DNA of 64,000 nt from Allobosea sp. 47.2.35 (GTDB lineage: Bacteria > Pseudomonadota > Alphaproteobacteria > Rhizobiales > Beijerinckiaceae): assembly GCF_024655635.1 (NCBI RefSeq), contig NZ_JANLGI010000016.1:1-64000 (forward strand). Direction: 5' to 3'. Every line of letters starts with the position of its first letter. Position 1 is the first letter of the stretch. Below, in pieces: positions 24,200 through 46,928 of this stretch. The notes below the pieces were generated by a model, which ran no database searches, was not told the origin of the DNA, and saw only the letters and a program-made list of their open reading frames with translations. A program made the translations under genes and the position numbers.

Positions 24200-25327
24200 T
24201 CAGGACAGGCCGAGCGGGCGCCGATAGGCTGCGAGAAAGAGCAGGAAGGCGGCGCACCAGCACAGGGCCGCGTAGCTCGGATGCAGCGGCGCGCTGACTT
24301 CCGAAAGCAGCCGCAACGGCGCTGCGGCAGCGCTCGTAACCAGCATCGCCTGTGAACCGACGGGGCTGGAAAAGGCCTGACGGGATTGCCGCCGGACCAT
24401 GCTGGCCATGACGCCGAGGCACATCGCGCCGACGGTGCCCGCCGCCCAGGCGTGCAGAACCGCATTTCCGCTGACTCCCAGGCCGGCGGCGCGCAAAGTG
24501 TTCAAACCCAGGCCCAGCGGAATCCAGGCGTAGGCCAGGTGAACGGCGACAAGGCCTGCGTAATGGGCAACACGCCAGGGCCGCCAGGCGAGCCATCGGG
24601 TGGCTTGCAGGACCGCCGCTACCAGGCTGACAGGAGCTTGTCCTGCAGCGTCGCAAGTCCAGAGGCCGAGAGCGGCCACGAGCGACAAGGCGGCGGCGGC
24701 CTCGAAAGCGCGAGGCAGCCGCGGGCCGCATTCCTGCCCGTGCAGAGCAAGATAGGCGGCGGTCAGTGCCGGCGCGACACGTCCCGCGATCACCGCTACC
24801 AGCCCGATTTCGGCCGCCAGGGCGAGCCGCAGGCGCAAGCCGACGGCCAAAGCGTCGAGCGCGGTTTCCGATGCCGAGGCTCCAGCCAGAGCGACCATAA
24901 GAAGAACGATCTTGATTTCCCGTAGGGCGCCGGCCCCGATCACGCGGACGGCCACGACTCCCGCGACGCAGAGGATGAAGCCGGCCGCAATCGGGGCCGT
25001 GAACGCCGGATAACAGAACGGCATCGCACGGCCTGCCAGCCAAAGCGCTGCGAGGCTCAGCAAAAAAGCGCGCGACATCGCCGCCGAGCGAGTCCAGCGC
25101 GGCAATGCGGTGAGCAGGAAGCCGGCCATGACCGCCGGCATCATCCCGAACACCAGCATTTGGCTGTGCCAAGCTGCCGCTGTCATGCCGGCCGGCGAGA
25201 GGCCGGCGAGCCAGGGTGCAACGCCTGCGACGGCAGCGAGCGCGGCGAGGACGAAGAAGATGCGAAAGGGCCGGTGCGTGCATGCGGAGCAGTCGCCCCC
25301 GGCCGTCACGCGCCACCGCCTTGCCAT
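24200..25327 (-). CDS. NnrS-family membrane protein (divergent)
   Basis: 375 residues with about 12 hydrophobic segments; HAWAAGTVGAMCLGVMASMVRR in the last third is the NnrS hallmark. NnrS proteins are heme- and copper-linked membrane proteins tied to protection during nitrite/NO respiration. This copy has AWHSQMLVFG where the two others in the window have WHVHEM or WHAHEM, so the HxHE motif is lost. It overlaps the UbiX-like gene by 22 bp and is probably co-transcribed with it. Confidence 0.8.
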   Translation of the reverse strand: MARRWRVTAGGDCSACTHRPFRIFFVLAALAAVAGVAPWLAGLSPAGMTAAAWHSQMLVFGMMPAVMAGFLLTALPRWTRSAAMSRAFLLSLAALWLAGRAMPFCYPAFTAPIAAGFILCVAGVVAVRVIGAGALREIKIVLLMVALAGASASETALDALAVGLRLRLALAAEIGLVAVIAGRVAPALTAAYLALHGQECGPRLPRAFEAAAALSLVAALGLWTCDAAGQAPVSLVAAVLQATRWLAWRPWRVAHYAGLVAVHLAYAWIPLGLGLNTLRAAGLGVSGNAVLHAWAAGTVGAMCLGVMASMVRRQSRQAFSSPVGSQAMLVTSAAAAPLRLLSEVSAPLHPSYAALCWCAAFLLFLAAYRRPLGLS

Positions 25328-27510: not shown

Positions 27511-28053
27511 ATGTCGGATCCACAGATGACCAGGTCGGCGGCGATTCCGGCGACGCTGCCGCCAGGACTGGCGCGCGCCGTCGCGCCATTGCCGCTTGCG
27601 CCGCTGCAGCCGTTGCTGGCGCTGATGCTGCATCGCATCGGCCGGCTCTATCCCGATCTCTACGGCCGTCTCGGCGAGCACGCGGACAAGCGCTTCGGCA
27701 TCGATCCGACCGACCTGCCATTCGCCTTGCTGCTGGAGCCGAGCCTGCGCCAGCCCCGGCTATGCGCCGTGCGGGCTCTGCCTGCTCGCCTCGACGCCAG
27801 CATCCGCGGGCCGCTGGTGGGGCTCGTCGGCATGGCGGAAGGCACGCTTGACGGCGATGCGCTGTTCTTCTCGCGGATTCTCTGGGTGGAGGGCGATGTC
27901 GCGGCGGCTCTCGCCCTGCGCAACGCGATCGACGACGCCCGCATCGACTTCGGCGCCGTCATGCTCGGCCCCCTCGGCCAAAGACTCGGCCAGGTGCTGC
28001 GCAGAAAACTGCAAGGGCGGTCCGCCGCCGTCGGAGCCGAGACATGGAGCTGA
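27511..28053 (+). CDS. ubiT: UbiT-like SCP2-domain lipid carrier
   Basis: 180 residues with an SCP2-type lipid-binding fold: LPFALLLEPSLRQPRLCAV, LVGMAEGTLDGDALFFSR and LWVEGDVAAALALRNAIDDA. UbiT is the accessory protein for the O2-independent ubiquinone route in proteobacteria, paired with UbiU and UbiV. Its 3' end overlaps ubiU by 10 bp, giving the order ubiT-ubiU-ubiV. The likely role is presenting hydrophobic intermediates to the hydroxylase and methylase steps. Confidence 0.88.
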   Translation: MSDPQMTRSAAIPATLPPGLARAVAPLPLAPLQPLLALMLHRIGRLYPDLYGRLGEHADKRFGIDPTDLPFALLLEPSLRQPRLCAVRALPARLDASIRGPLVGLVGMAEGTLDGDALFFSRILWVEGDVAAALALRNAIDDARIDFGAVMLGPLGQRLGQVLRRKLQGRSAAVGAETWS

Positions 28054-29021
28054 TTTGCCCTGCCGGGACGCCGGCCAGTCTCGAAGCCGCGGTTGAAGCG
28101 GGCGCCGACGCTGTCTATTGCGGCTTTCGCGACGAGACCAACGCCCGCAACTTCCCGGGCCTCAATTTCTCGCGCGAGGAGCTGCGCAAGGGGGTCGCCT
28201 TCGCCCATCGGCGCGGCGTCAAGGTTCTGGTCGCGATCAATACATTCGCCCGTGCTGGGGCGTTCGGCCTGTGGCAGGAAGCGATCGACGATGCCGTCAT
28301 GGCTGGCGCGGATGCGCTGATCCTCGCCGACCTCGCGACGCTTGACTATGCCCATCGCCGGCACCCCGGCCAAAGGCTCCACGTCTCGGTCCAGGCCGGC
28401 GCGGCCAATCCCGACGCCATCCGCTTCTATGCCGAGACCTTCGGTGCGCAACGCGTCGTGCTGCCCCGTGTGCTGAACGTGATGGAGATCGCCTCGATGG
28501 TGCGCGAGACCTCCTGCGAGACGGAGGTCTTCGTCTTCGGTGGCCTTTGCGTGATGGAGGAGGGACGGTGCTCGCTCTCCTCCTACGCCACAGGCCAATC
28601 GCCGAACATGAACGGCGTCTGTTCGCCCGCGAGCCATGTGGCCTATGCCGAGCGGAACGGACATATCGTTTCCACGCTGGGCGGCTTCACCATCAACAGC
28701 TTCGGCAAGGACGAGCCGGCGGGGTATCCGACCCTGTGCAAGGGGCGTTTCGCCACGCCCAGAGGCTCCGGCTACATCTTCGAGGAGCCTGTCAGCCTCG
28801 ACGCGGCCCTGATGCTGCCGGCATTGCGCGATGCCGGCGTGACCGCCTTCAAGATCGAAGGCCGACAGCGCGGGCGCGCCTATATCGCGGGCGTGGTGAG
28901 CTCCTTCCGCAAGATACTCGCGGCGATCGACGAGGGCCGCAGCCCTCCCGCAGTCAGCCTGGCGGCCATGGCCGAAGGGCAGGCCAGCACGGTCGGTGCC
29001 TATCGCAAGGGCTGGCGTTAG
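28044..29021 (+). CDS. ubiU: UbiU, 4Fe-4S U32-family subunit of anaerobic ubiquinone hydroxylase
   Basis: 325 residues. The peptidase-U32 fold starts MELICPAGTPASLEAAVEAG. Cys169, Cys176, Cys193 and Cys232 (GGLCVMEEGRC, GVCSPASH, TLCKGRF) match in number and spacing the four cluster ligands known in E. coli UbiU. With UbiV it hydroxylates the ubiquinone ring without O2, using prephenate as the oxygen donor in E. coli. It overlaps ubiT, and ubiV follows after 19 bp. Confidence 0.93.
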   Translation: MELICPAGTPASLEAAVEAGADAVYCGFRDETNARNFPGLNFSREELRKGVAFAHRRGVKVLVAINTFARAGAFGLWQEAIDDAVMAGADALILADLATLDYAHRRHPGQRLHVSVQAGAANPDAIRFYAETFGAQRVVLPRVLNVMEIASMVRETSCETEVFVFGGLCVMEEGRCSLSSYATGQSPNMNGVCSPASHVAYAERNGHIVSTLGGFTINSFGKDEPAGYPTLCKGRFATPRGSGYIFEEPVSLDAALMLPALRDAGVTAFKIEGRQRGRAYIAGVVSSFRKILAAIDEGRSPPAVSLAAMAEGQASTVGAYRKGWR

Positions 29022-29040
29022 GCCCGCAAAGGAACAGGCG

Positions 29041-29958
29041 ATGCAGCTTACCCTTGGACCCGTGCTCTATCATTGGTCGCCGGAACGCTGGCGCGATTTC
29101 TACTATCGCGTGGCGGACGAGGCGCAGGTCGACGCCGTGGTCGTCGGCGAGGCCGTCTGCTCGAAGCGCGCGCCCTTCAAGCAGGATTCCATCCCCGCCG
29201 TGGTCGAACGGCTGGAGGCAGCGGGCAAGCGCGTGCTGCATTCCAGCCTGATCCTGATCTCGCTGCCGCGCGAGCGCCGCCAGACCCGTGAGCTGATGCA
29301 GAGCGACGAGGCCGAGGTCGAAATCAACGACCTGACCTGTCTGGCTGGGCTGGCGTCGAGGCCGTTCGCGGTCGGCCCCTTCGTCAACGTCTACAACGAG
29401 GCAGCGGCCGGATTTCTGGCCGAGCGAGGCGCGACGCGCATCTGCCTGCCACCGGAGTTGCCGCTGCCTGCGGTCGCGGCCATCTCGGCGGCGGTGCCGC
29501 AACTCGCGACCGAGGTCTTTGCCTTCGGCAAGGTGCCTCTGGCGATGTCGGCGCGTTGCTATCATGCGCGTGCTCACAAGCTGACCAAGGACAATTGTCG
29601 TTTCGTCTGCGAGAAGGATCCTGACGGCATGCCCGTCAAGACGCTTGACGGCGCCGGATTCCTCTCCGTGAACGGGGTGCAGATCCTTTCGGATAGCTGC
29701 GTCAGCCTGCTGAGCGATATTCCTGCCTTGCGTCGTGCCAGCGTGGCTTCGCTGCGCCTCTCGCCGCAGGGCTGCGACATGGTCGCGGTCGCGCGATTGT
29801 TCCGCGACGTCGTCGGTGGGCGGATCGAGCCCGAGGAAGCCGAGAGGCTGCAGGGTGAAATCTATCCGGATGTGCCGTTCTCCAACGGCTTCCTGCACGG
29901 GATGGCCGGTCACGTTCATGCGGGAGCGGGCGGCGGCAGTTTGGGCGCGTTGCGCTGA
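29041..29958 (+). CDS. ubiV: UbiV, 4Fe-4S U32-family partner of UbiU
   Basis: 305 residues from the ATG at 29041, with AAAGGAACAGG just upstream. The U32 fold is shorter than UbiU. Cys40, Cys173, Cys186 and Cys190 (CYHARAHKLTKDNCRFVC) repeat the E. coli UbiV ligand pattern with CX12CX3C. It forms the heterodimer with UbiU. The next gene, 30 bp on, is an unknown small protein likely in the same transcript. Confidence 0.93.
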   Translation: MQLTLGPVLYHWSPERWRDFYYRVADEAQVDAVVVGEAVCSKRAPFKQDSIPAVVERLEAAGKRVLHSSLILISLPRERRQTRELMQSDEAEVEINDLTCLAGLASRPFAVGPFVNVYNEAAAGFLAERGATRICLPPELPLPAVAAISAAVPQLATEVFAFGKVPLAMSARCYHARAHKLTKDNCRFVCEKDPDGMPVKTLDGAGFLSVNGVQILSDSCVSLLSDIPALRRASVASLRLSPQGCDMVAVARLFRDVVGGRIEPEEAERLQGEIYPDVPFSNGFLHGMAGHVHAGAGGGSLGALR

Positions 29959-30982: not shown

Positions 30983-32188
30983 ATGGCACCCATACCGCGA
31001 CTGCGGGCCTATGACGGGCCCGCTTTTCTGTCTTACGGCTTTCGGCCGTTCTTCCTCCTGGCCGCCTTGCAGGCCGGCCTGACGATGCTGGTCTGGCTGC
31101 CTTTCGTCACCGGCCATCTCGCCGTGCCCACCGCCTTCGCGCCGGTGGACTGGCATGTCCACGAAATGCTCTTCGGCTATCAGGCGGCCGCGATCGGCGG
31201 CTTCCTGCTGACGGCCATCCCGAACTGGACCGGGCGCTTGCCGGTGCTGGGCCGGCCGCTTCTGGTCCTCGTGCTGGCATGGCTCGCCGGGCGTCTCGCC
31301 GTCTCGGCCTCGGCCCTGATCGGCTGGCGCCTGGCGATGGCGATCGATGCGCTGTTCCTGCTGCTGCTCGCCGCCGCCGCTGCCCGCGAGATCGTAGCGG
31401 GGCGCAACTGGCGCAACCTCAAGGTCGTGGTGCTGATCGTGCTTCTGCTGGCGGCGAATCTCGCCTTCCATCTCGAAGCGGGGTTGACCGGAGGCGCCGG
31501 CGTCTCCCGCCGTTTCGCGATCGCCGCCGTCCTGATGCTGGTCATGCTCATCGCCGGACGGATCGTGCCGAGCTTCACGCGCAATTGGCTGGCGCAGCGC
31601 GGAGAGGGGCGGCTGCCGGCCCCCTTCGGCACCTATGACAAGGCCGTGCTCGCCGGCAGCGCCGTGGCGCTCATCTGCTGGATCGCGGCGCCGGACACGG
31701 TCACGACCGGCGTCGTGCTGATGATTGCCGCAGGCCTCCACCTCTTCAGGCTCGCGCGCTGGGCCGGCGACCGGACTTGGCGCAATCCTCTGCTCGTCGT
31801 CCTGCATGTCGCCTACCTTTTCGTGCCGATCGGCTTCGCTCTGACGGCCCTGTCGAGCCTCGGCTTCATCGCTCCCGCTGCCGGCACCCATGCCTGGACC
31901 GCCGGCGCCTTCGGGACGATGACGCTCGCTGTGATGTCGCGCGCCAGCCTCGGGCATACCGGCCGCGCTCTGACCGCCACGGCGGCGACCCAGCTCTGCT
32001 ATGCGCTCGTCGTCATCGGCACGGTGGCGCGGATCTGCTCGGCATTCGGCCATGGCCCGGTCGCGCTGCTGCATGTCGCAGGGCTGGGCTGGTCTCTGGC
32101 CTTCCTCGTCTTCGCTGTGGCCTACTGGCCGGTCCTGACCGGCGTGCGTGTCGCGCCGAAGGCTCCCGCCGCCGCCCAGCGGGCCTGA
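30983..32188 (+). CDS. nnrS: NnrS-family membrane protein
   Basis: 401 residues and about 12 membrane segments. YGFRPFFLLAALQAGL at the N-terminus and WHVHEMLFGYQAAAIGGFLL near residue 54 are NnrS hallmarks; HAWTAGAFGTMTLAVMSRASLGHTGR is the C-terminal one. It lies 60 bp after pseudoazurin with GGAAGGAGGGAG before the ATG, so it is probably in the same NnrR-driven unit. NnrS is associated with tolerance to nitrosative stress during denitrification; its reaction is not defined. Confidence 0.9.
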   Translation: MAPIPRLRAYDGPAFLSYGFRPFFLLAALQAGLTMLVWLPFVTGHLAVPTAFAPVDWHVHEMLFGYQAAAIGGFLLTAIPNWTGRLPVLGRPLLVLVLAWLAGRLAVSASALIGWRLAMAIDALFLLLLAAAAAREIVAGRNWRNLKVVVLIVLLLAANLAFHLEAGLTGGAGVSRRFAIAAVLMLVMLIAGRIVPSFTRNWLAQRGEGRLPAPFGTYDKAVLAGSAVALICWIAAPDTVTTGVVLMIAAGLHLFRLARWAGDRTWRNPLLVVLHVAYLFVPIGFALTALSSLGFIAPAAGTHAWTAGAFGTMTLAVMSRASLGHTGRALTATAATQLCYALVVIGTVARICSAFGHGPVALLHVAGLGWSLAFLVFAVAYWPVLTGVRVAPKAPAAAQRA

Positions 32189-32286: not shown

Positions 32287-33478
32287 AGCCGCAGCCGCCT
32301 TCATCGCGCTGCGGGTTGTTCAGGATCGGCCAAAAGCCGATGAGCCATGTGGCGAAGGACGCCGACCAGAGCCCGGCTGCGAGCGCATAGTGCAGACCGA
32401 GCAGGCTGGAGCCCACGCCGAGCTCGGGCAGAACGCGCATCACGGTCGCGGCAGCCATCAGCGTCAGCGCCAGCTTGGCCGCCGGCGGCAGCACGAGGTC
32501 GCGTCCGCTATGGCGCAGGCCCGCGATCACGAAGACTGCCATCACCGCCAGCCCGAGCGCCCCGACGGACAGCAGATGCAGTCCGGTTGCCGGGGCGACC
32601 GGGGCGCCGAGGCCGGCCAGCCCCAGCACCAGAAAGCCGAGGCCGCCGCAGGCGTTCGCCGCTGCGAGCGCAAGCACTTCCATGCGCAGAACGGCACGGC
32701 CGATGAACCACTCCGCCAGCCTGTCGAAGAAGGCGGCTGCCGCGGCGAGCGCAAGCCAGGCGGGCACGGCGGAGTCCGGCGCGACGAGTCCGGCGATGAG
32801 CTGGAGCCCCACGAGCCCGGCGGTCAGGTTCTGGCGACCGGGATGGGGCCGGTAGGGCGTCGTCTCGCCGCTGGGATCCAGCGCATGGTTGACGACCACG
32901 ACGTTGATGCGGGCGATGGCCAGCGAGAGAAAGACCAGGAAGACGGCGAGCGCGGCCTGCAGCAGCCGCCCGGACAAGGCCGTCTCCCCCAGAATCCAGG
33001 CCACGCGGATCGAGAGTTCCAGCAGCGCGAACAGCATGATCCAGACGGCGAAGGAGCCGTGGCGGGTGGTGCGCCGGTCGATCAACGGCCGGGTGACATA
33101 GACGAGCAGCACGGCAAGGAAGGCGAGGTCGGTCAGCGCCGCCGGGATGATCAGGGCATCGGCGCCGAGGAAGCCGATCAATCGGCCGGGCAGCCAGAGG
33201 GCCAGCAGGAGCAGGAGCGCGCGTCCGCGGCGCGGCTTCGTATCGGTCCATTCCGGCATGGCCGAGCCGAGAAAGCCGGCGAGCGCAGCGCCATAGGTCC
33301 CGAAGATCATCTCGTGGGCGTGCCACTGCCCGGCCGGCACCTGCCGGGTGAAGGGCAGATCGAAGGCGAAGACCGTCACCCAGATCAGCGGCAGCAGCAC
33401 CGCATGGGCCGCTGCCACGGGAAAGAACAGCTTCAGCGCTTCCGCGAGCAGCGGGTGGTCCGGTGAATGTCGGGTCAT
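32285..33478 (-). CDS. nnrS: NnrS-family membrane protein
   Basis: 397 residues from the ATG at 33478, one base after the ABC ATPase stop. It has about 12 membrane segments and WHAHEMIFGTYGAALAGFLG near residue 52, matching the HxHE motif of the copy at 30983. It is the last gene of the - strand unit TonB receptor - binding protein - permease - ATPase - nnrS, so this copy may work with the importer rather than directly in the nor/nir group. Confidence 0.88.
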   Translation of the reverse strand: MTRHSPDHPLLAEALKLFFPVAAAHAVLLPLIWVTVFAFDLPFTRQVPAGQWHAHEMIFGTYGAALAGFLGSAMPEWTDTKPRRGRALLLLLALWLPGRLIGFLGADALIIPAALTDLAFLAVLLVYVTRPLIDRRTTRHGSFAVWIMLFALLELSIRVAWILGETALSGRLLQAALAVFLVFLSLAIARINVVVVNHALDPSGETTPYRPHPGRQNLTAGLVGLQLIAGLVAPDSAVPAWLALAAAAAFFDRLAEWFIGRAVLRMEVLALAAANACGGLGFLVLGLAGLGAPVAPATGLHLLSVGALGLAVMAVFVIAGLRHSGRDLVLPPAAKLALTLMAAATVMRVLPELGVGSSLLGLHYALAAGLWSASFATWLIGFWPILNNPQRDEGGCG

Positions 33479-40189: not shown

Positions 40190-40882
40190 CTACTTCACGT
40201 TCTCGGCGAGCCGTTTCAGCGCAGGCGCATCGCAAACCACGAGCTTCTGCCGGCCGCCTTCGACCAGTCCCTGCGTCTCCCAGGCGCTGAGGATGCGCGA
40301 GACCGTATGCAGGGTGGTTCCGGTCATTTCTGCGATGTCGCGGCGCGAGATCGGAAAATCAACGCGCATGCCGGCCACATCGCGTTTCCCGGCCTGCTCG
40401 ATCAGTCGCAGCACGGCATGGGCCACGCGGCGCTCGACTTCCTCGGTGGACATCTCGCGGATGCGTGTATGGGCCTCGTCGAGACGCTGGCCGATGGTCC
40501 GTATGGCGTTCATCGCCAGGTGCGGATTGTCTTCGACGAAGCTGTCCCAGGATTCGCTCGGCCATGCCGAAACGAGGCTGTCGACGGCGGCCGTCGCGGT
40601 TCCCGGATAGTCGGGGCGGCTGAGTGCGCGCGTAAAGCCGAACAGGTCCCCGGGGTGGACGACACGGACGATGATCTGCTGACCATCACGCGTCACCTGC
40701 GTCACCTTGAGCCGGCCATGCAGCAGGAGATAGAAGGCCTTTGCCGGATCGCCCTGCTCGAAGACCGCCTCGCCCTGGGGAATTCGCCGCGCGCTCGCTT
40801 GCGCGGTCATGCGGTCGAGCTGCGCGTCGCTCATGGCCGCGAAAAGCGGGATGCTACGCAGCACGCTGCGATCCAAAGCCAC
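40190..40882 (-). CDS. nnrR: Crp-Fnr family regulator, NnrR/Dnr type
   Basis: 230 residues. The N-terminal cyclic-nucleotide-binding fold (GEAVFEQGDPAKAFYLLLHG) lacks the Fnr cysteine cluster. The C-terminal helix-turn-helix ISRRDIAEMTGTTLHTVSRI has TTLHTVSR as recognition helix, typical of NnrR/Dnr activators, which respond to NO through heme. Its likely targets are the TTGCG-N4-CGCAA boxes in the window. It sits beside norF and norE on the same strand but has its own 100-bp upstream gap. Confidence 0.85.
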   Translation of the reverse strand: MALDRSVLRSIPLFAAMSDAQLDRMTAQASARRIPQGEAVFEQGDPAKAFYLLLHGRLKVTQVTRDGQQIIVRVVHPGDLFGFTRALSRPDYPGTATAAVDSLVSAWPSESWDSFVEDNPHLAMNAIRTIGQRLDEAHTRIREMSTEEVERRVAHAVLRLIEQAGKRDVAGMRVDFPISRRDIAEMTGTTLHTVSRILSAWETQGLVEGGRQKLVVCDAPALKRLAENVK

Positions 40883-41255: not shown

Positions 41256-41804
41256 TCAGCCGAGATAGACGACGGGGAGGATCAGGAGCCAGACGAGGTC
41301 GATCAGGTGCCAGATCGTGGCGACGCCGGCGATATGCCTCGGCGTCGGTCGCCAGGCGACGAGCAGCAGCAAGCCGGCGACGAACAGGACATGAGCGAAG
41401 TGGAAGCCGACGATGAGCATGTAGAGCTCGGCGAGGCGTGCTTCCATGGCGGCCAGCGCCGGAAGTTCGTGGGTGAACGCGACGATCTTGAGGCCGCAGA
41501 ATATGAGGCCGCCCAGAGCTGCGGCAATGAGATTGCCTAGTGGCTGCCATCCGGACGCCGCCCGAGCGGCGAAGAAGCCACTGGAGACGAGTATGGCCGT
41601 GGCGATGCCCGCGAGCGGAAGGTCGAGTTCGCCGCGCACGGCAGCCAGCGCAGCGGGATCGAGCATTCCCAACAGCAGGAAGGCGCCGAGCAGAGCGCCG
41701 AAGACGGCGAGCTCGCTCCAGATCAGGATCCAGAGCAGGAGCTCGATGCCACTCCCGGCTTCCGGCTGCGTGGTATCCAGGCCCTCGCGTAACGCGACGT
41801 TCAT
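41256..41804 (-). CDS. norE: NorE, cytochrome oxidase subunit III-like
   Basis: 182 residues with five predicted helices. WILIWSELAVFGALLGAFLLL and the C-terminal ELYMLIVGFHFAHVLFVAGL and WHLIDLVWLLILPVVYLG are subunit-III features. NorE supports full NO reductase activity but carries no cofactor. The start at 41804 overlaps the nirV stop (ATGA). Confidence 0.85.
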   Translation of the reverse strand: MNVALREGLDTTQPEAGSGIELLLWILIWSELAVFGALLGAFLLLGMLDPAALAAVRGELDLPLAGIATAILVSSGFFAARAASGWQPLGNLIAAALGGLIFCGLKIVAFTHELPALAAMEARLAELYMLIVGFHFAHVLFVAGLLLLVAWRPTPRHIAGVATIWHLIDLVWLLILPVVYLG

Positions 41805-42676
41805 GCCGGCAGCAGCCTGCGCAGCCGGTCGCGCCAGCTCTGCTCGCGGACCAGCCGGAAGCCGAGATTGTCGGGCGGAGTCGCCACCGAGCAGCCGCCC
41901 GCCTTCGGGTTGCGAATGAAGAAGCTCATCGGGGCGCGATGCTGGCCCTCGACGACATAGATCCCGCAATTGGTGGTCTCGCTGGTCGTCCGGCCGGCAG
42001 CATCCTGCGTGACGCGCCGTAAGCAGGTCTGCGTCCATTCCCAGACATTGCCGGCGATGTCGTGGACGCCGTGCTCGTTCGCGCCGAAGCTGCCGATCGG
42101 CAGGGGGGCCGGGTCGGAAGCTGCCTTGCGATTGGCTTCTCGTTCGTAGTCTGCAAGCCAGCGCAGCGCCGGGTTGGTCTCGCTGCCGTCCAGGCCCCGC
42201 GCGTCGTCGACGAAGCGCGAGCCGGCGGCCTGAGCCCATTCGCCATCGCTCGGCAGACGCCAGGCGGCGGCTGTCTCGCGAGACAGCCAGTTGGCGTAGT
42301 CGATGGCGTCGGCATGGCTGACGCCAGTCACCGGCAGGTCTCCGCGAGCCGCCGCATGATCGAGGTTCCTACAGGCCCCGGCGCTGATGCAGCGCGCAAA
42401 ATCAGCGGCGGTTACCTGATACCGCATGATCTCGAGCGGCTGCGCGAGCCGGACGGTCACGCGCGGGGCGTCGATCGGGCGGCCCGCGCGGCTGTACTCG
42501 CCGTCGACGCGGTGCAACAGCGTCGCCGGAGGCACGATGGCCGTTTGGGGCATGGGGAAGGCCGGTACGGCGTGGTTCGCGGGGCCGGCGAGCAGAAGTG
42601 CTGCGGCACCCGCCATGAACAGGAAGCCGAGGGAAGTCGTCAGTCTCGGCAGTGAAGTGTTGAGCGTCGTACCCAT
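41801..42676 (-). CDS. nirV: NirV, formylglycine-generating-enzyme-like protein
   Basis: 291 residues. An N-terminal hydrophobic helix (LGFLFMAGAAALLLAGPA) would anchor or export it; the rest is a SUMF1-type fold: ISAGACRNLD, VTGVSHADAIDYANWLSRE, RLPSDGEWAQAAG and HDIAGNVWEWTQTC. NirV is commonly encoded next to nirK and its exact job is not known; maturation of NirK has been suggested. 58 bp and a strong hairpin separate it from nirK. Confidence 0.88.
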   Translation of the reverse strand: MGTTLNTSLPRLTTSLGFLFMAGAAALLLAGPANHAVPAFPMPQTAIVPPATLLHRVDGEYSRAGRPIDAPRVTVRLAQPLEIMRYQVTAADFARCISAGACRNLDHAAARGDLPVTGVSHADAIDYANWLSRETAAAWRLPSDGEWAQAAGSRFVDDARGLDGSETNPALRWLADYEREANRKAASDPAPLPIGSFGANEHGVHDIAGNVWEWTQTCLRRVTQDAAGRTTSETTNCGIYVVEGQHRAPMSFFIRNPKAGGCSVATPPDNLGFRLVREQSWRDRLRRLLPA

Positions 42677-42734: not shown

Positions 42735-43862
42735 TCAGATGCCGGCCGGGGCCACGATCTGCTTCATCAGGTCGTCGTTCCACTCGCCTTCGACCTTGAA
42801 GTGGCCGGCGGCACCGAGTTCGAACGCCTCGATCAGGTTGTGGTTGACGTAGGCGTAGATCCCCGGCTGCAGGAAGGTGTAGAGCGCCGCCCCCGCACAG
42901 CCGCCGGGGATGAACCAGGTCTCGAGGTCCCGCTCTGGCGGGTTCCGGAACTTGCCCGTCGCCCAGACATAGTCGCCATGGCCACCGATCAGGTGCGGGC
43001 GGGTGTCACGGTTCGCCTGCGAATGCAGGATCAGCACCGTCTCGCCGACCTTGGCGGTGAGCGCGTTCTTGCCGGTCAGGGCGCCGACCTTGCCGTTGAA
43101 GACGACATGGCTCGGGGTCAGCGTGCGCATCGCCTTGGCGACATCCTCATGCGCTTCGCCAGGGCTGGCATAGCGCTTGAACTTGCCGTTCTCGTCGCGC
43201 GGCACGTAGAAGTCCTGCTCGCCGACATAATAGGCCTTGTCGTACTTCAGCGGCTTGCCCTGATGGTCCTTCAGTCCGTCGCGCGGCAGCACCGTGATGG
43301 CGCCGTTCATGCCGGCCGTAACGTGCCAGGGCACCATGCCCGGAGGGGCGCAGTGGTAGACGAATACGCCCGGGCGGGTGGCTTTCCAGCGCAGCACGAC
43401 CTTCTCGCCGGGGTTGACCTCGGTCAGGGCGCCGCCGCCGAGCGCACCTGTCGACGAATGGAAGTCGATGTTGTGCATCAGCTCGTTGGTTTCGGCGTTG
43501 ATCAGCGTCAGCTCGACATAGTCGCCCTCGTGGACAACCATCATCGGGCCCGGGACCGTGCCGTTGAAGGTAAAGGCGAAGGTCTCGGTTCCGGCGTCGT
43601 CAAGAATGATCTTCTTCTCGCGGATGGTCATCGTGAACTCGACGACCTTGGGGCCTCCGGTCGCGACCTGCTCATGCGCATGCACGAAGGGGGGATCGAC
43701 CAGCTTCGGCTTGATGCGCGGCAGCTTCGCAATATCGGCGGCGGTGGCCTTGGTCATCACGGCCTGGGCCTGCGCCGGTGCAGAGGCGGCCTGGACGATC
43801 GCCCCGGTGGCTGCCGCCCCCGCCAGTATGCTACGGCGGGTCAGTTTGAGTTCTTCGCCCAT
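42735..43862 (-). CDS. nirK: Copper-containing nitrite reductase
   Basis: 375 residues from the ATG at 43862 with AAGGAG 12 bases upstream. Tat-type signal [13 protein letters not shown]. Two cupredoxin domains. Type 1 copper: His130, Cys171, His180, Met185 ([13 protein letters not shown]). Type 2 copper: His135, His170, His341. The catalytic Asp133 and His290 ([10 protein letters not shown]) are present. It reduces nitrite to NO in the periplasm with electrons from pseudoazurin. It is first in the unit nirK-nirV-norE-norF and has an NnrR/FNR-type box 71 bp upstream. Confidence 0.96.
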
Positions 43863-43932: not shown

Positions 43933-43946
43933 TTGTTGCAGCACAA
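43933..43946. promoter_or_regulatory. NnrR/FNR-type box upstream of nirK
   Basis: TTGTTGCAGCACAA has the TTG-N8-CAA frame of the other boxes in the window with 4 of 5 bases of each arm paired. It lies 71 bp upstream of the nirK ATG, close to the spacing seen at other sites. Confidence 0.6.
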
Positions 43947-43976: not shown

Positions 43977-44261
43977 TCACTCGGCGGCGACCATTGCTGG
44001 CTCCCAGGCCGGCTCATAGGTCAGCGTTACGGTGACGCCCGTGACGCCCTCGACGGCGCCGGCGGCAAAGGCCACGGCCTCCTTCAGGAAGCCGGTGAGC
44101 GGGCAGCCACGCGTGGTCGTCGTCATGGTGATCGCGACCGAACCGTCCGGCGCCGCCGCGATCGCGTAGATCAGGCCGAGGTCGATGATGCTGCGGCCCA
44201 TCTCGGGGTCGAGCACGTCACGCAGCGCGATCTCGACGAGGCGCTCCAGATTGGTGCTCAT
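43977..44261 (-). CDS. DUF59 (MIP18/PaaD-like) metal-sulfur assembly protein
   Basis: 94 residues from the ATG at 44261, overlapping the stop of the gene upstream by ATGA. LRDVLDPEMGRSIIDLGLIY and the Cys-bearing TTTTRGCPLTGFLKEAV are the DUF59 motifs. Family members help insert Fe-S clusters or deliver metals. It ends the five-gene unit that starts at 46754 or 46496 and precedes nirK by 114 bp. A client could be an iron or copper protein of NO or nitrite reduction; this is inference. Confidence 0.85.
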   Translation of the reverse strand: MSTNLERLVEIALRDVLDPEMGRSIIDLGLIYAIAAAPDGSVAITMTTTTRGCPLTGFLKEAVAFAAGAVEGVTGVTVTLTYEPAWEPAMVAAE

Positions 44262-44800
44262 CCGTGCGCCCTCCCGCCGCCATGGCGCACGAGCAGGCGA
44301 TAGGCCGTGCCGGACGCGTCGAAATTGCCGGCCCATTCATGCTGGCGCTTGGCCAGTTCCGGAAAGAGGAAGACCGGCTCGCGGGCGAGCAGTGCGAACA
44401 GCACATCGCCGGGCTGCAGCGCCTCGAGTGCTTCAAGGATGCGCACCATCGGCTCCGGCGGTTCGAGATCGATCAGGTCGAGCTCCTCGACGGGGTCGCC
44501 CCAGAAGATGGCGGAGGGGCTGCTGCCCGTGGCGAGCCCGGCCTCGGCCTGCATCTCGGCGACAGGCGAAAACACGACTTCCCAGTCGCCGCCGTCGAGC
44601 GGGCGGTCACTGGCGGAGAAGCCGCGATTGGCCATCACCGAGAACAGCGGCACCGGCCGGAAGGGCGCGACGAGGCGCAGGGACTCGCCCGGCGCCAGCG
44701 CGCCGACGGCCTCCATGATCGCCTGGAACGGCTCCTCGCCGGCCAGCAGCATCGGGCGGACGTCAAGCTCGCGGATGGGCGATGGTTCCGGTGTGGACAT
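44258..44800 (-). CDS. Tandem DUF2249 protein
   Basis: 180 residues with two repeats of the DUF2249 fold: LDVRPMLLAGEEPFQAIMEA with PGESLRLVAPFRPVPLFSVM in the first, and DLEPPEPMVRILEALEALQP with GDVLFALLAREPVFLFPELA in the second. It is a small soluble family related in shape to SirA/TusA-like folds, though without their Cys here. It sits between DUF59 and a large membrane protein whose 3' end it overlaps by 38 bp. DUF2249 genes recur beside nir and nor in denitrifiers; function unknown. Confidence 0.8.
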   Translation of the reverse strand: MSTPEPSPIRELDVRPMLLAGEEPFQAIMEAVGALAPGESLRLVAPFRPVPLFSVMANRGFSASDRPLDGGDWEVVFSPVAEMQAEAGLATGSSPSAIFWGDPVEELDLIDLEPPEPMVRILEALEALQPGDVLFALLAREPVFLFPELAKRQHEWAGNFDASGTAYRLLVRHGGGRAHG

Positions 44801-46160
44801 GGTCCGGTCTCCTTTCCTCTGCCCGAGCGGCGAAGAGCCTGGGGCGTTCATGCGCCGGCGGCCGGTCGGCAGCCTTGATCTGCGACAAGCGGCGGATGTG
44901 GACCAGCTCGGCGGCGATGCCGATCGTTCCCGCCAGGCCGATCGCCATGCTCGATCGGAAGCCGCCGGTCGCCTCCATCGCGAGCGCCGCCGTTCCGAAC
45001 GCGACCCCTGCATAGTAGAGCAGGAACCACCAGCCGGTGCGCGGCATGGCGACGAGATCGCCGACGCGCGGCGCCGGGCCGCGCCCGAGCCGGGGCGCAT
45101 AGGTTTCGAGCCAGGTCATGAAGGAGACGATCTTCACGAGCTGCGCCAGCGTCAAGCCGCCAAGCCAGCCGAAGACGACGAGGAAGACGAGTGCCGCGAT
45201 CGAGCCGTCCCCGGCATGGGCCACGACGGCGACCGGCAGCAGCGCCAATCCAAGCGCGAGCGCCGCAAAGGCGGGAATGCTGGCGAGCATGTTGATCTCC
45301 AGCGCCTTGCGCCTGCGGGCGCTGTAAAGCGCGAGGATGCCCCGGCCGTAGAGGAGGCTGGCCAGGACGAGCATGATGAGCGCCGCTACGATCCAGGTGG
45401 CGCCGGGCTCGATGCCGGCGAAGGGGGCGGCGAGGCCCGCGAAGGCGAGGCCGAGCCCCAGGCTGGCCAACAGCAGCACCGGGCGCACCCCGCGTGCGGG
45501 CGGCTCCGGCGCCATCATGAACATGACGAAGAGGCGGTAGCTGACGCCGAAGGCGATCAGGCCGAGCCAGCCGCCCAGGCCGAGCAGGGCGTGGAAGGGC
45601 AGGCCGTCGGGAAGCAACGCGACGTGGCCGAGCCAGCCACCGCGTCCCGACAGGAGCGTGGTGAAGGCCGCGCCGCTCATCGCCGTGGCTGCGAGGCAGG
45701 CGAGGCCGACGAGGACGAAACGGGCGAACAAGGCGATGGGCCTCGCGTTCAGCAGCGTCGCGGCCAGCATCAGGCCGAGCAGGGTCAGGCCCGAGAGCAG
45801 CGCGGCGCCGCCCAGCGGCAGGAGGTCGAGCGGGGCGTCGATCCAGCCGGCCAGCGTGGCGAAGCCGGTGCTGAGCAGGATGAGGCCGGCGGCCAGCGCG
45901 GCCAGCACCGGCAGAGCGAGTTGGGGGAAGGCAAGCGGGCGGGAGACCAGAACCGGCACGAACTGCAGCAGCGCGCCGGCCATGGCGAGGCTGAGCCAGC
46001 CGACAGCCACGAGGTGGACGAGGACGAGTGTCGCGGGCTCCCCGAGGCCGGCGGCGGGATAGCCGATGCCGGCGACGGCGAGAGCCTCGGCCGCAAGCAG
46101 GAAGGCGAGCGCGGCCGCGAAGTAGCTCATCGTCCAGCGGGACAGCGATGCCATCGGCAT
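44763..46160 (-). CDS. Large membrane protein of unknown function in nir-nor region
   Basis: 465 residues, about 12 membrane helices. LVLVHLVAVGWLSLAMAGALLQFVPVL near residues 46-72 and PFHALLGLGGWLGLIAFGVSYRLFVM near 188-213 recall the histidine-bearing helices of heme-copper oxidase subunit I-like proteins: His49, His179 and His190 could be heme ligands. It lacks the full six-His set of true oxidases or NorB. The position between two DUF2249 genes suggests a membrane partner for them. An ATG two codons in is an alternative start. Confidence 0.75.
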   Translation of the reverse strand: MPMASLSRWTMSYFAAALAFLLAAEALAVAGIGYPAAGLGEPATLVLVHLVAVGWLSLAMAGALLQFVPVLVSRPLAFPQLALPVLAALAAGLILLSTGFATLAGWIDAPLDLLPLGGAALLSGLTLLGLMLAATLLNARPIALFARFVLVGLACLAATAMSGAAFTTLLSGRGGWLGHVALLPDGLPFHALLGLGGWLGLIAFGVSYRLFVMFMMAPEPPARGVRPVLLLASLGLGLAFAGLAAPFAGIEPGATWIVAALIMLVLASLLYGRGILALYSARRRKALEINMLASIPAFAALALGLALLPVAVVAHAGDGSIAALVFLVVFGWLGGLTLAQLVKIVSFMTWLETYAPRLGRGPAPRVGDLVAMPRTGWWFLLYYAGVAFGTAALAMEATGGFRSSMAIGLAGTIGIAAELVHIRRLSQIKAADRPPAHERPRLFAARAEERRPDHVHTGTIAHPRA

Positions 46161-46187
46161 GGCTGCGGTCTCCCGGATGCGAAGCGG

Positions 46188-46496
46188 TCAGTGACCGCAG
46201 GTGCAGGAATGGCCTTCGTCATGGCCGCCGCAATCGGCGGCATGTTCATCGCTGCCGGCTTCGTTGCGGCCGATCTCGACCTGCCAGATCTCCGGACCCT
46301 GGACGATGTAGCCCCAGGAATAGACGCCGGGATAACGCGCGTCGATCTGCCGGCGCAGCGGCGCGGGATCGTGATCGTTGACGATGCTGAAGGCATCGCC
46401 GGGGGAGAGCCGCTCCAGGATGCCGAAGATCGTGGCATGGCGCACGACCGGCGGAATCGTGCGCACGTCGAGCGGTTCGAGAGGCTGGATGGTCAT
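46188..46496 (-). CDS. DUF2249 protein with Cys/His-rich tail
   Basis: 102 residues. The DUF2249 domain (LDVRTIPPVVRHATIFGILE, SIVNDHDPAPLRRQIDARYP, WEVEIGR-like strand WQVEIGRNE) is followed by a tail with three Cys and five His in 21 residues, ending GHDEGHSCTCGH, likely to bind a metal. It follows an NnrR-type box by 69 bp and leads the membrane protein gene by 27 bp. Confidence 0.82.
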   Translation of the reverse strand: MTIQPLEPLDVRTIPPVVRHATIFGILERLSPGDAFSIVNDHDPAPLRRQIDARYPGVYSWGYIVQGPEIWQVEIGRNEAGSDEHAADCGGHDEGHSCTCGH

Positions 46497-46564
46497 GGTT
46501 CGGCTCCGGTTGCGGCCCCGATGCGGGCGGCTCTCCAGCCTAACGGAGCCCTCCCTGCGGCAAT

Positions 46565-46578
46565 TTGCCGAAGCGCAA
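46565..46578. promoter_or_regulatory. NnrR-type box upstream of DUF2249 unit
   Basis: TTGCCGAAGCGCAA differs from TTGCG-N4-CGCAA at one base. It lies 69 bp upstream of the DUF2249 start at 46496 and just after the 51-residue gene, so it drives 46496 leftward through the DUF59 gene. Confidence 0.68.
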
Positions 46579-46598
46579 ACTGCGCGCTTTTGGCGGCC

Positions 46599-46754
46599 TC
46601 ACTGTTCGAGGAAGAGCAGGACGGCGGTGGCGAGCGACATCATGACGGCGGCGGCGACGCCGCCTTTCTGGAGCACGCCCATCCGGTAGAGCAGCAGGGC
46701 CATCACGATGATCGCGGGCGTGGCGACGACGAGACCCATCTGAGCGTCGGTCAT
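46599..46754 (-). CDS. 51-residue membrane protein
   Basis: 51 residues, ATG at 46754 with GGAGAA nearby. Two hydrophobic helices, TPAIIVMALLLYRMGVLQKG and VAAAVMMSLATAVLLFLEQ. Not recognised. It lies between norD (175 bp upstream, past a large palindrome) and the NnrR-type box of the DUF2249 unit, so it may be the last gene of the nor transcript. Confidence 0.65.
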   Translation of the reverse strand: MTDAQMGLVVATPAIIVMALLLYRMGVLQKGGVAAAVMMSLATAVLLFLEQ

Positions 46755-46788
46755 GGCGTTCTCCTCAACGCTTGTCTTGACGTTCGAG

Positions 46789-46907
46789 CCCTCATCCTGA
46801 GGAGCAGCGGAAGGCTGCGTCTCGAAGGATGCTCCAGATGGTTCCGGAGCCTCCTGGAGCATCCTTCGAGACGCCATTTCTGGCGAAACGGCTCCTCAGG
46901 ACGAGGG
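46789..46907. repeat. 119-bp nested palindrome, dispersed-repeat type
   Basis: Two nested inverted repeats: an outer pair at 46789-46805 and 46891-46907 (CCCTCATCCTGAGGAGC, one mismatch) and an inner perfect 21-bp pair at 46817-46837 and 46854-46874. The outer arm also contains a small TCCTGAGGA palindrome. Elements of this look are scattered between genes in many alphaproteobacterial genomes. It may also act as a terminator after norD. No protein is encoded. Confidence 0.8.
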
Positions 46908-46928
46908 CTTGCTTTTGGCTTCGGGCAC

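What the first reader, a model, noticed from the sequence alone, without database searches (positions are those of the whole stretch)
43977..46754. Unknown DUF59 / DUF2249 / membrane-protein set between nirK and norD
Five small or unknown genes run on one strand from a 51-residue membrane protein, through a DUF2249 protein with a Cys/His-rich tail, a 465-residue membrane protein with histidine-bearing helices, and a tandem DUF2249 protein, to a DUF59 metal-sulfur assembly protein. An NnrR-type box (46565-46578) sits before four of them. Short overlaps (ATGA; 38 bp) suggest tight coupling. Seen: order, overlaps, motifs. Known: DUF59 proteins help build metal-sulfur centres. Inferred: a metal delivery or NO-handling complex that serves NirK or NorB. 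No function has been set for this combination to my knowledge.
Basis: partly seen in the sequence, partly recalled or inferred. Interest (0 to 1): 0.82.

Follow-up and report, generated by a model that had tools for sequence, protein, structure and literature searches.

The report
Oxidase-like membrane gene set beside nirK
Four neighbouring genes in a soil bacterium encode a membrane protein shaped like a respiratory oxidase but without its catalytic centre, two small proteins of an unexplained family akin to sulfur carriers, and an iron-sulfur assembly protein; they keep company with nitric-oxide-making and nitric-oxide-response genes, so they probably help the cell live with nitric oxide.

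The parts
46188..46496 (-). Single DUF2249 protein (102 aa), invariant R19, H20, H42, W61, Y63, W71, Cys/His-rich tail ending CTCGH
   Evidence: PF10006 1.4e-24; 33-sequence alignment; a C-x-C near the C-terminus in 25 of 33
44763..46160 (-). MEM465: 12-helix membrane protein of the heme-copper oxidase / NO reductase fold with only two invariant histidines (H49 in helix 2, H190 in helix 6)
   Evidence: No Pfam/NCBIfam hit at E 0.01; AlphaFold2 pLDDT 90.8, pTM 0.90; Foldseek and VIA-align to CcoN and NorB; H49 and H190 in 47 of 47
44258..44800 (-). Tandem DUF2249 protein (180 aa), second domain TusA-like with Pro-Pro where TusA has the Cys-Pro of its active site
   Evidence: PF10006 twice, TusA 4.1e-7; model and Foldseek to TusA 3lvj; P114 and P115 in 36 of 36, no column with Cys in 30% or more
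43977..44261 (-). DUF59 / MIP18-type Fe-S assembly protein (94 aa), DPE and TTTxxGCP motifs
   Evidence: PF01883 1.6e-16; D18 P19 E20 and C53 in 29 of 29; solved relatives 1uwd, 2cu6
46565..46578 (.). NnrR-type box TTGCCGAAGCGCAA before the four-gene set (68 bases lie between it and the DUF2249 start)
   Evidence: 12.3 bits; boxes at -82 to -87 in most other Bosea loci and about -107 to -117 in many rhizobia; 36 of 50 sets that start with DUF2249 have a box of 10 bits or more
46599..46754 (-). 51-residue membrane protein; nor-associated small gene, not part of the conserved set
   Evidence: in 26 of 40 loci that have it, divergent beside norE and away from the set
42735..43862 (-). nirK, copper nitrite reductase (start set at a later ATG than the longest frame, because the frame from 43949 would run through the box)
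   Evidence: TIGR02376 526 bits, cut-off 296
43933..43946 (.). NnrR-type box TTGTTGCAGCACAA of nirK
   Evidence: 13.4 bits
46929..51565 (-). norC, norB, norQ, norD upstream of the set
41801..42676 (-). nirV-like formylglycine-generating-enzyme family protein next to nirK
   Evidence: PF03781 7.4e-44
30983..32188 (+). NnrS, a constant partner in the set-bearing genomes tested
   Evidence: PF05940 1.5e-108; NnrS in 21 of 21 set-bearing genomes tested

Best explanation
The four genes form an NO-tolerance module for cells that make or meet nitric oxide in nitrogen-oxide respiration. Shown by computation: MEM465 has the 12-helix oxidase/NO-reductase fold but keeps only one histidine in helix 2 and one in helix 6, so it lacks the heme-copper centre; its gene is tightly linked to a tandem DUF2249 gene (TusA-like second domain without the sulfur-carrying cysteine) and a DUF59 gene; most sets have an NnrR/FixK-type box or follow nnrS. 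Inferred: MEM465 holds one b-type heme between H49 and H190 and binds NO or passes electrons at the membrane; the DUF2249 proteins dock on it; DUF59 (in distant relatives a hemerythrin) handles iron or Fe-S clusters damaged by NO. The module would work beside NnrS, which in Vibrio is reported not to remove NO but to keep the iron pool from forming dinitrosyl-iron complexes.
Against: No experiment. No heme or NO binding shown; atom positions of the model were not available, so the H49-H190 geometry is unmeasured. 13 set-bearing genomes have no nirK, and 7 of these 13 no NosZ either. Samples are phylogenetically uneven: the ten set-bearing genomes of the order sample fall in six genera. The box matrix does not separate NnrR from FixK or other FNR-type sites, and 289 of 1461 other called genes score as high. 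The fifth B-type locus, L016, shows no hemerythrin gene in the list, and L018 lies beside a molybdoenzyme of unknown substrate, which suggests a wider role than NO.
Confidence: 0.4

Rival explanations
1. Assembly or activation factor for a denitrification enzyme (NorCB, NirK or Nap): DUF59 and DUF2249 deliver a metal or a cluster, MEM465 anchors the work at the membrane.
For: Rodionov et al. 2005 (passage) suggest that COG4309 is relevant for the function of the NO reductase; the set lies between nor and nirK in the window and in the Bosea loci; nirK enrichment.
Against: Set-bearing genomes without cNorB and the qNor-type domain and without nirK; nosZ not enriched (1 of 10 against 43 of 269); 47 nirK+ genomes of the order sample lack the set. 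Nap presence was not surveyed.
Confidence: 0.2
2. Sensor/regulator like Thermus DrpA/DrpB: the DUF2249 proteins sense nitrogen oxides or redox state and tune a CRP/FNR- or Rrf2-type regulator; MEM465 is the membrane receptor.
For: DrpA is a DUF2249 protein whose loss, with DrpB, makes nitrate-reductase expression independent of nitrate (PMC6282519, passages); homologues of the CRP regulator 40190-40882 in 63 or 64 and of the Rrf2 gene in 16 of 80 loci.
Against: DUF59 and, in B-type, hemerythrin point to iron chemistry rather than signalling; Pfam finds no DNA-binding or kinase domain in the set; Rrf2 and CRP genes are common in denitrification islands anyway (general knowledge).
Confidence: 0.15
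3. Electron-transfer or quinol-linked enzyme subunit: MEM465 passes electrons through one heme to a partner enzyme, as a distant relative stands beside a molybdoenzyme with FeS and membrane-anchor partners.
For: B-type neighbours in L018: molybdopterin oxidoreductase, 4Fe-4S protein, DmsC-type anchor; oxidase fold.
Against: A single candidate heme (two invariant His) gives no obvious transmembrane path; no redox enzyme is constant beside A-type sets.
Confidence: 0.12

Closest known systems
Non-catalytic homologues of the heme-copper oxidase superfamily (HCOH families of Pei et al. 2014; content recalled, paper not held; cited in PMC11218638 as linking DUF2249 to the superfamily)
   Same: 12 helices in the oxidase fold, about two conserved histidines, denitrification context
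   Different: Whether MEM465's own family is among those listed there could not be checked; I saw no mention of the four-gene operon with DUF59 in the passages I read
NnrS (PF05940)
   Same: Membrane protein of NO regulons, often adjacent; NnrS too is said to belong to the oxidase superfamily (recalled)
   Different: No NnrS hit in MEM465, profile comparison 0.1%; both kinds of gene occur side by side
COG4309/DUF2249 genes of NnrR and NsrR regulons (Rodionov et al. 2005, PMC1274295; that COG4309 is DUF2249 is recalled)
   Same: DUF2249 gene near nor, NnrR/NsrR control
   Different: That paper (passages) names a single gene; membrane protein and DUF59 not mentioned in the passages shown
DrpA/DrpB of Thermus (PMC6282519) and DUF2249 genes of Haloferax mediterranei (PMC11218638)
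   Same: DUF2249 protein made under nitrate respiration or denitrification
   Different: Drp is a two-gene pair; the haloarchaeal paper has 0 occurrences of DUF59
TusA sulfur carriers
   Same: Fold of the second DUF2249 domain (3lvj, TM-score 0.81 by target)
   Different: Active-site Cys replaced by Pro in 36 of 36

Membership tests
Heme-copper oxidase / NO reductase catalytic subunit | 12-helix fold of CcoN/NorB | tested here: met
Heme-copper oxidase / NO reductase catalytic subunit | six conserved histidines for two hemes and one metal (definition recalled) | tested here: not met
   only H49 and H190 are His in 50% or more of 47 sequences
Heme-copper oxidase / NO reductase catalytic subunit | sequence relation to NorB | tested here: inconclusive
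   hhalign probability 0.2%; COX1 PF00115 not hit by MEM465, hit by NorB
Three-unit HCO homology (HCOH) proteins (definition recalled) | 12 helices in the HCO fold with two conserved histidines | tested here: met
Three-unit HCO homology (HCOH) proteins (definition recalled) | binding of one heme | not testable with these tools
   needs purified protein
NnrS (PF05940) | match to the family profile | tested here: not met
   no hit at E 0.01; NnrS of the window hits at 1.5e-108
DUF2249 (PF10006) | profile match over cut-off 29.5 bits | tested here: met
   86.1 bits and 112.1 bits
TusA sulfur carrier (tandem DUF2249 protein) | fold | tested here: met
   3lvj_C E 9.4e-4, probability 1.00, 78 columns; the single DUF2249 protein was not modelled
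TusA sulfur carrier (tandem DUF2249 protein) | active-site cysteine (CPxP motif recalled) | tested here: not met
   P114-P115 in 36 of 36, no column with Cys in 30% or more
DUF59 / MIP18 (PF01883) | profile match; conserved DPE and Cys | tested here: met
   60.7 bits, cut-off 23.5; DPE and C53 in 29 of 29
SUF-associated assembly protein TIGR02945 | score over equivalog cut-off 143.4 | tested here: not met
   78.1 bits
NnrR regulon | TTG-N8-CAA box upstream | tested here: met
   46565-46578; 49 of 72 sets with own upstream region against 289 of 1461 called genes; the matrix does not separate NnrR from FixK sites
NnrR regulon | NnrR- and NO-dependent expression | not testable with these tools
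   no expression data seen for these genes

The most novel reading that the evidence does not exclude
A membrane repair or defence complex of a new make-up: an oxidase-fold protein that has lost its catalytic centre carries a single heme in the space between its first and second four-helix units (a place where, as recalled, true oxidases hold no cofactor), captures NO there, and works with cysteine-less TusA-like proteins and an Fe-S carrier (DUF59, replaced by hemerythrin in distant relatives) to restore NO-damaged iron centres.
Probability: 0.2. Interest if true: 0.75.

Novelty: new variant of a known kind. Interest (0 to 1): 0.52.

Why it matters
Denitrifying cells make nitric oxide, which damages Fe-S proteins, and how those without NO reductase survive is not well explained (general knowledge). 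A conserved module found with NirK and NnrS, also in genomes with no NO reductase detected, is a candidate answer. It gives DUF2249, tied to NO since 2005 without a function, constant partners and a structural frame. By tblastn all four genes stand in S. meliloti 1021 on pSymA between hemN and nnrS/nirK, so it can be tested at once in a tractable non-pathogen.

Tried and rejected
Sequence link of MEM465 to NorB or NnrS by profile comparison: none; profile against all PDB chain sequences: none at E 10. Only the fold comparison gave the answer.

NosZ maturation (sulfide delivery to its copper centre): rejected, since nosZ is not enriched (1 of 10 against 43 of 269) and the window's genome has no NosZ over the cut-off, although 12 of 80 loci lie beside nos genes.

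NorB assembly as a general role: rejected. That PF22085 marks qNor is recalled; its control was positive in one of 14 genomes.

Co-evolution by distance correlation: all nine gene pairs tested correlate (0.49-0.76 over all loci, 0.53-0.87 without Bosea), nirK and norB with each other as well, so it does not tell partners apart. Single DUF2249 profile against PDB sequences: only weak DegV/FakB hits, not used.

Limits. The 80 loci are the best 80 of 282 relatives, mostly Hyphomicrobiales; 14 are Bosea or near it; some contigs are too short for full 10-kb flanks (L035, L061, L099 among them). In one search some labels are weak (L064 'nirK' 31-37%, L039 'norB' 23%); nirK is counted as 50 of 80 loci by clustering. 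Of the 30 loci without clustered nirK, 29 genomes could be searched (L062 not held); two of the 16 with nirK (G582, G590) score low, though over the cut-off. Some genomes occur under two handles (G398/G583, G319/G581, G456/G574, G087/G587, by matching contig lengths or coordinates). G470 (E 1.2e-8, partial) was left out of the ten set-bearing genomes of the order sample. The B-type alignment leaves out L019. The seven regions fetched were not analysed further.
Full report
What is there. The window lies in a 5.2-Mb genome of 67 contigs; the nearest named loci are Bosea (91% identical membrane protein). Reading the minus strand: norC-norB-norQ-norD (51565-46929), a 51-residue gene (46754-46599), a single DUF2249 gene (46496-46188), the 465-residue membrane protein MEM465 (46160-44763), a tandem DUF2249 gene (44800-44258), a DUF59 gene (44261-43977), then nirK and a nirV-like gene. 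The reported overlaps and the NnrR-type box at 46565-46578 are correct. nirK has its own box at 43933-43946, so its start is probably the ATG at 43862.

The conserved unit. A class-wide search found MEM465 in 9 of 289 genomes including its own: three close relatives (E below 1e-90) and five distant ones. The close ones carry the same neighbours in the same order (the single DUF2249 gene was seen in two of three). A scan of genome contigs gave 282 relatives, of which the best 80 were kept. In these, tandem DUF2249 is present in 80 of 80 and DUF59 in 77 of 80 (in L035 the contig ends first); the single DUF2249 gene is in 54, directly upstream in 50. Median spacing is -4 bp for both downstream junctions. 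The 51-residue gene is in 40 loci; in 14 (13 Bosea and one 'Rhizobiales bacterium') it precedes the set, in 26 it is divergent beside norE, so it is a nor-associated gene.

What the small proteins are. The second domain of the tandem DUF2249 protein also hits TusA (4.1e-7), and the model of the whole protein (pLDDT 83.9, pTM 0.51) matches TusA 3lvj over 78 columns with target TM-score 0.81. Where TusA has its Cys-Pro (motif recalled) all 36 sequences have Pro-Pro. The single DUF2249 protein, not modelled here, keeps H20, H42, W61, Y63 and W71 in 33 of 33, and 25 of 33 have C-x-C near the end. DUF59 keeps DPE and the cysteine in 29 of 29.

Regulation. A matrix from nine FixK/NnrR-type boxes printed in the B. 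diazoefficiens NnrR paper (PMC6710368, table passages) finds a site of 10 bits or more upstream of 49 of 80 sets, against 7.8% of random 250-base stretches. Split: 36 of 50 sets that start with DUF2249, 13 of 22 that start with MEM465, and 0 of 8 where nnrS lies 3-9 bp upstream on the same strand, as expected inside an operon. Among 1461 called genes of the same loci, denitrification genes included, 289 have such a site. The matrix does not tell NnrR from FixK sites.

Company. Within the flanks held (up to 10 kb), 62 of 80 loci hold nir, nor or nos genes, 61 without the weak L064 match; with nnrS 69 or 68. In 279 genomes of the order the set is in 10. nirK over cut-off: 8 of these 10 against 47 of 269 others (p 5e-5). 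norB at E<1e-100: 5 of 10 against 37 of 269 (p 0.009). nosZ over cut-off: 1 of 10 against 43 of 269 (p 1). The ten fall in six genera, so these p-values are too small. Of 29 set-bearing genomes whose locus lacks clustered nirK, 16 have nirK elsewhere and 13 have none; 6 of 29 have cNorB at E<1e-60, all nirK-positive, so 10 have nirK without cNorB. The qNor-type domain PF22085 is over the cut-off in 0 of 39 set-bearing genomes (one match below it, in G592). Of the 13 without nirK, 6 have nosZ. NnrS is in 21 of 21 set-bearing genomes tested (8 from the order sample and those 13), in 0 of 14 control genomes; its frequency in the order could not be measured.

Interpretation. A dead-centre oxidase-fold membrane protein, DUF2249 proteins (TusA-like without the sulfur cysteine) and an Fe-S assembly protein (or, in distant relatives, a hemerythrin), mostly under an NnrR/FixK-type box and in the company of NnrS and NirK but not dependent on any one denitrification enzyme, is best read as an NO-tolerance module acting on iron or Fe-S sites. 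The mechanism (heme between H49 and H190, NO capture, iron or cluster repair) is inference. NnrS is reported to protect the iron pool from dinitrosyl-iron complexes without removing NO (PMC9246220, passages; PMC11526790, passages).

What was known. Rodionov et al. [quoted passage not shown] that COG4309 equals DUF2249 is recalled. Two papers of the library hold the word DUF2249: DrpA/DrpB of Thermus (PMC6282519, passages) and Haloferax mediterranei transcriptomics (PMC11218638, passages), which cites Pei et al. 2014 for a link of DUF2249 to the heme-copper oxidase superfamily; that paper was not held. No description of the four-gene set turned up: one search listed 15 papers, of which I looked at passages of one (PMC6710368), with S. 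meliloti tag numbers guessed from recall, found no paper. On pSymA of S. meliloti ml46 the genes are annotated DUF2249, hypothetical, DUF2249 and metal-sulfur cluster assembly factor; S. meliloti 1021 has tblastn matches to all four in the same order between hemN and nnrS/nirK.

Noticed in passing
window 46787-46909: Imperfect inverted repeat between norD and the 51-residue gene; similar copies (83-86%) on contigs C33 and C6 of the same genome, matching on both strands, so a dispersed palindromic element.
   Followed up: partly
window 24203-25327 (-), 30983-32188 (+), 32312-33454 (-): Three NnrS-family genes in one 64-kb window.
   Followed up: no
window 46599-46754: By position the 51-residue gene matches bsl3211 of B. 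diazoefficiens, which precedes norE in the locus-tag order and is 35.6-fold lower in an nnrR mutant (table; similar layout in Bradyrhizobium loci L057 and L070); sequence identity not checked.
   Followed up: partly
L017, L018, L019, L020: B-type relatives of MEM465 with a short DUF2249 gene and a hemerythrin close by, in L018 beside a molybdopterin oxidoreductase, 4Fe-4S protein and DmsC-type anchor: a parallel module of unknown substrate.
   Followed up: partly
window 27511-29958: Three genes that look like UbiT/UbiU/UbiV of anaerobic ubiquinone synthesis (labels recalled; only 28044-29018 was scanned, U32 peptidase fold) inside the denitrification island; homologues of that gene are in 17 of 80 set loci.
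   Followed up: no
L055 3951-7706: In a Pseudolabrys MAG the set is divergent from a gene that looks like narK and a respiratory nitrate reductase alpha subunit, with no nirK match in the genome (G572).
   Followed up: no
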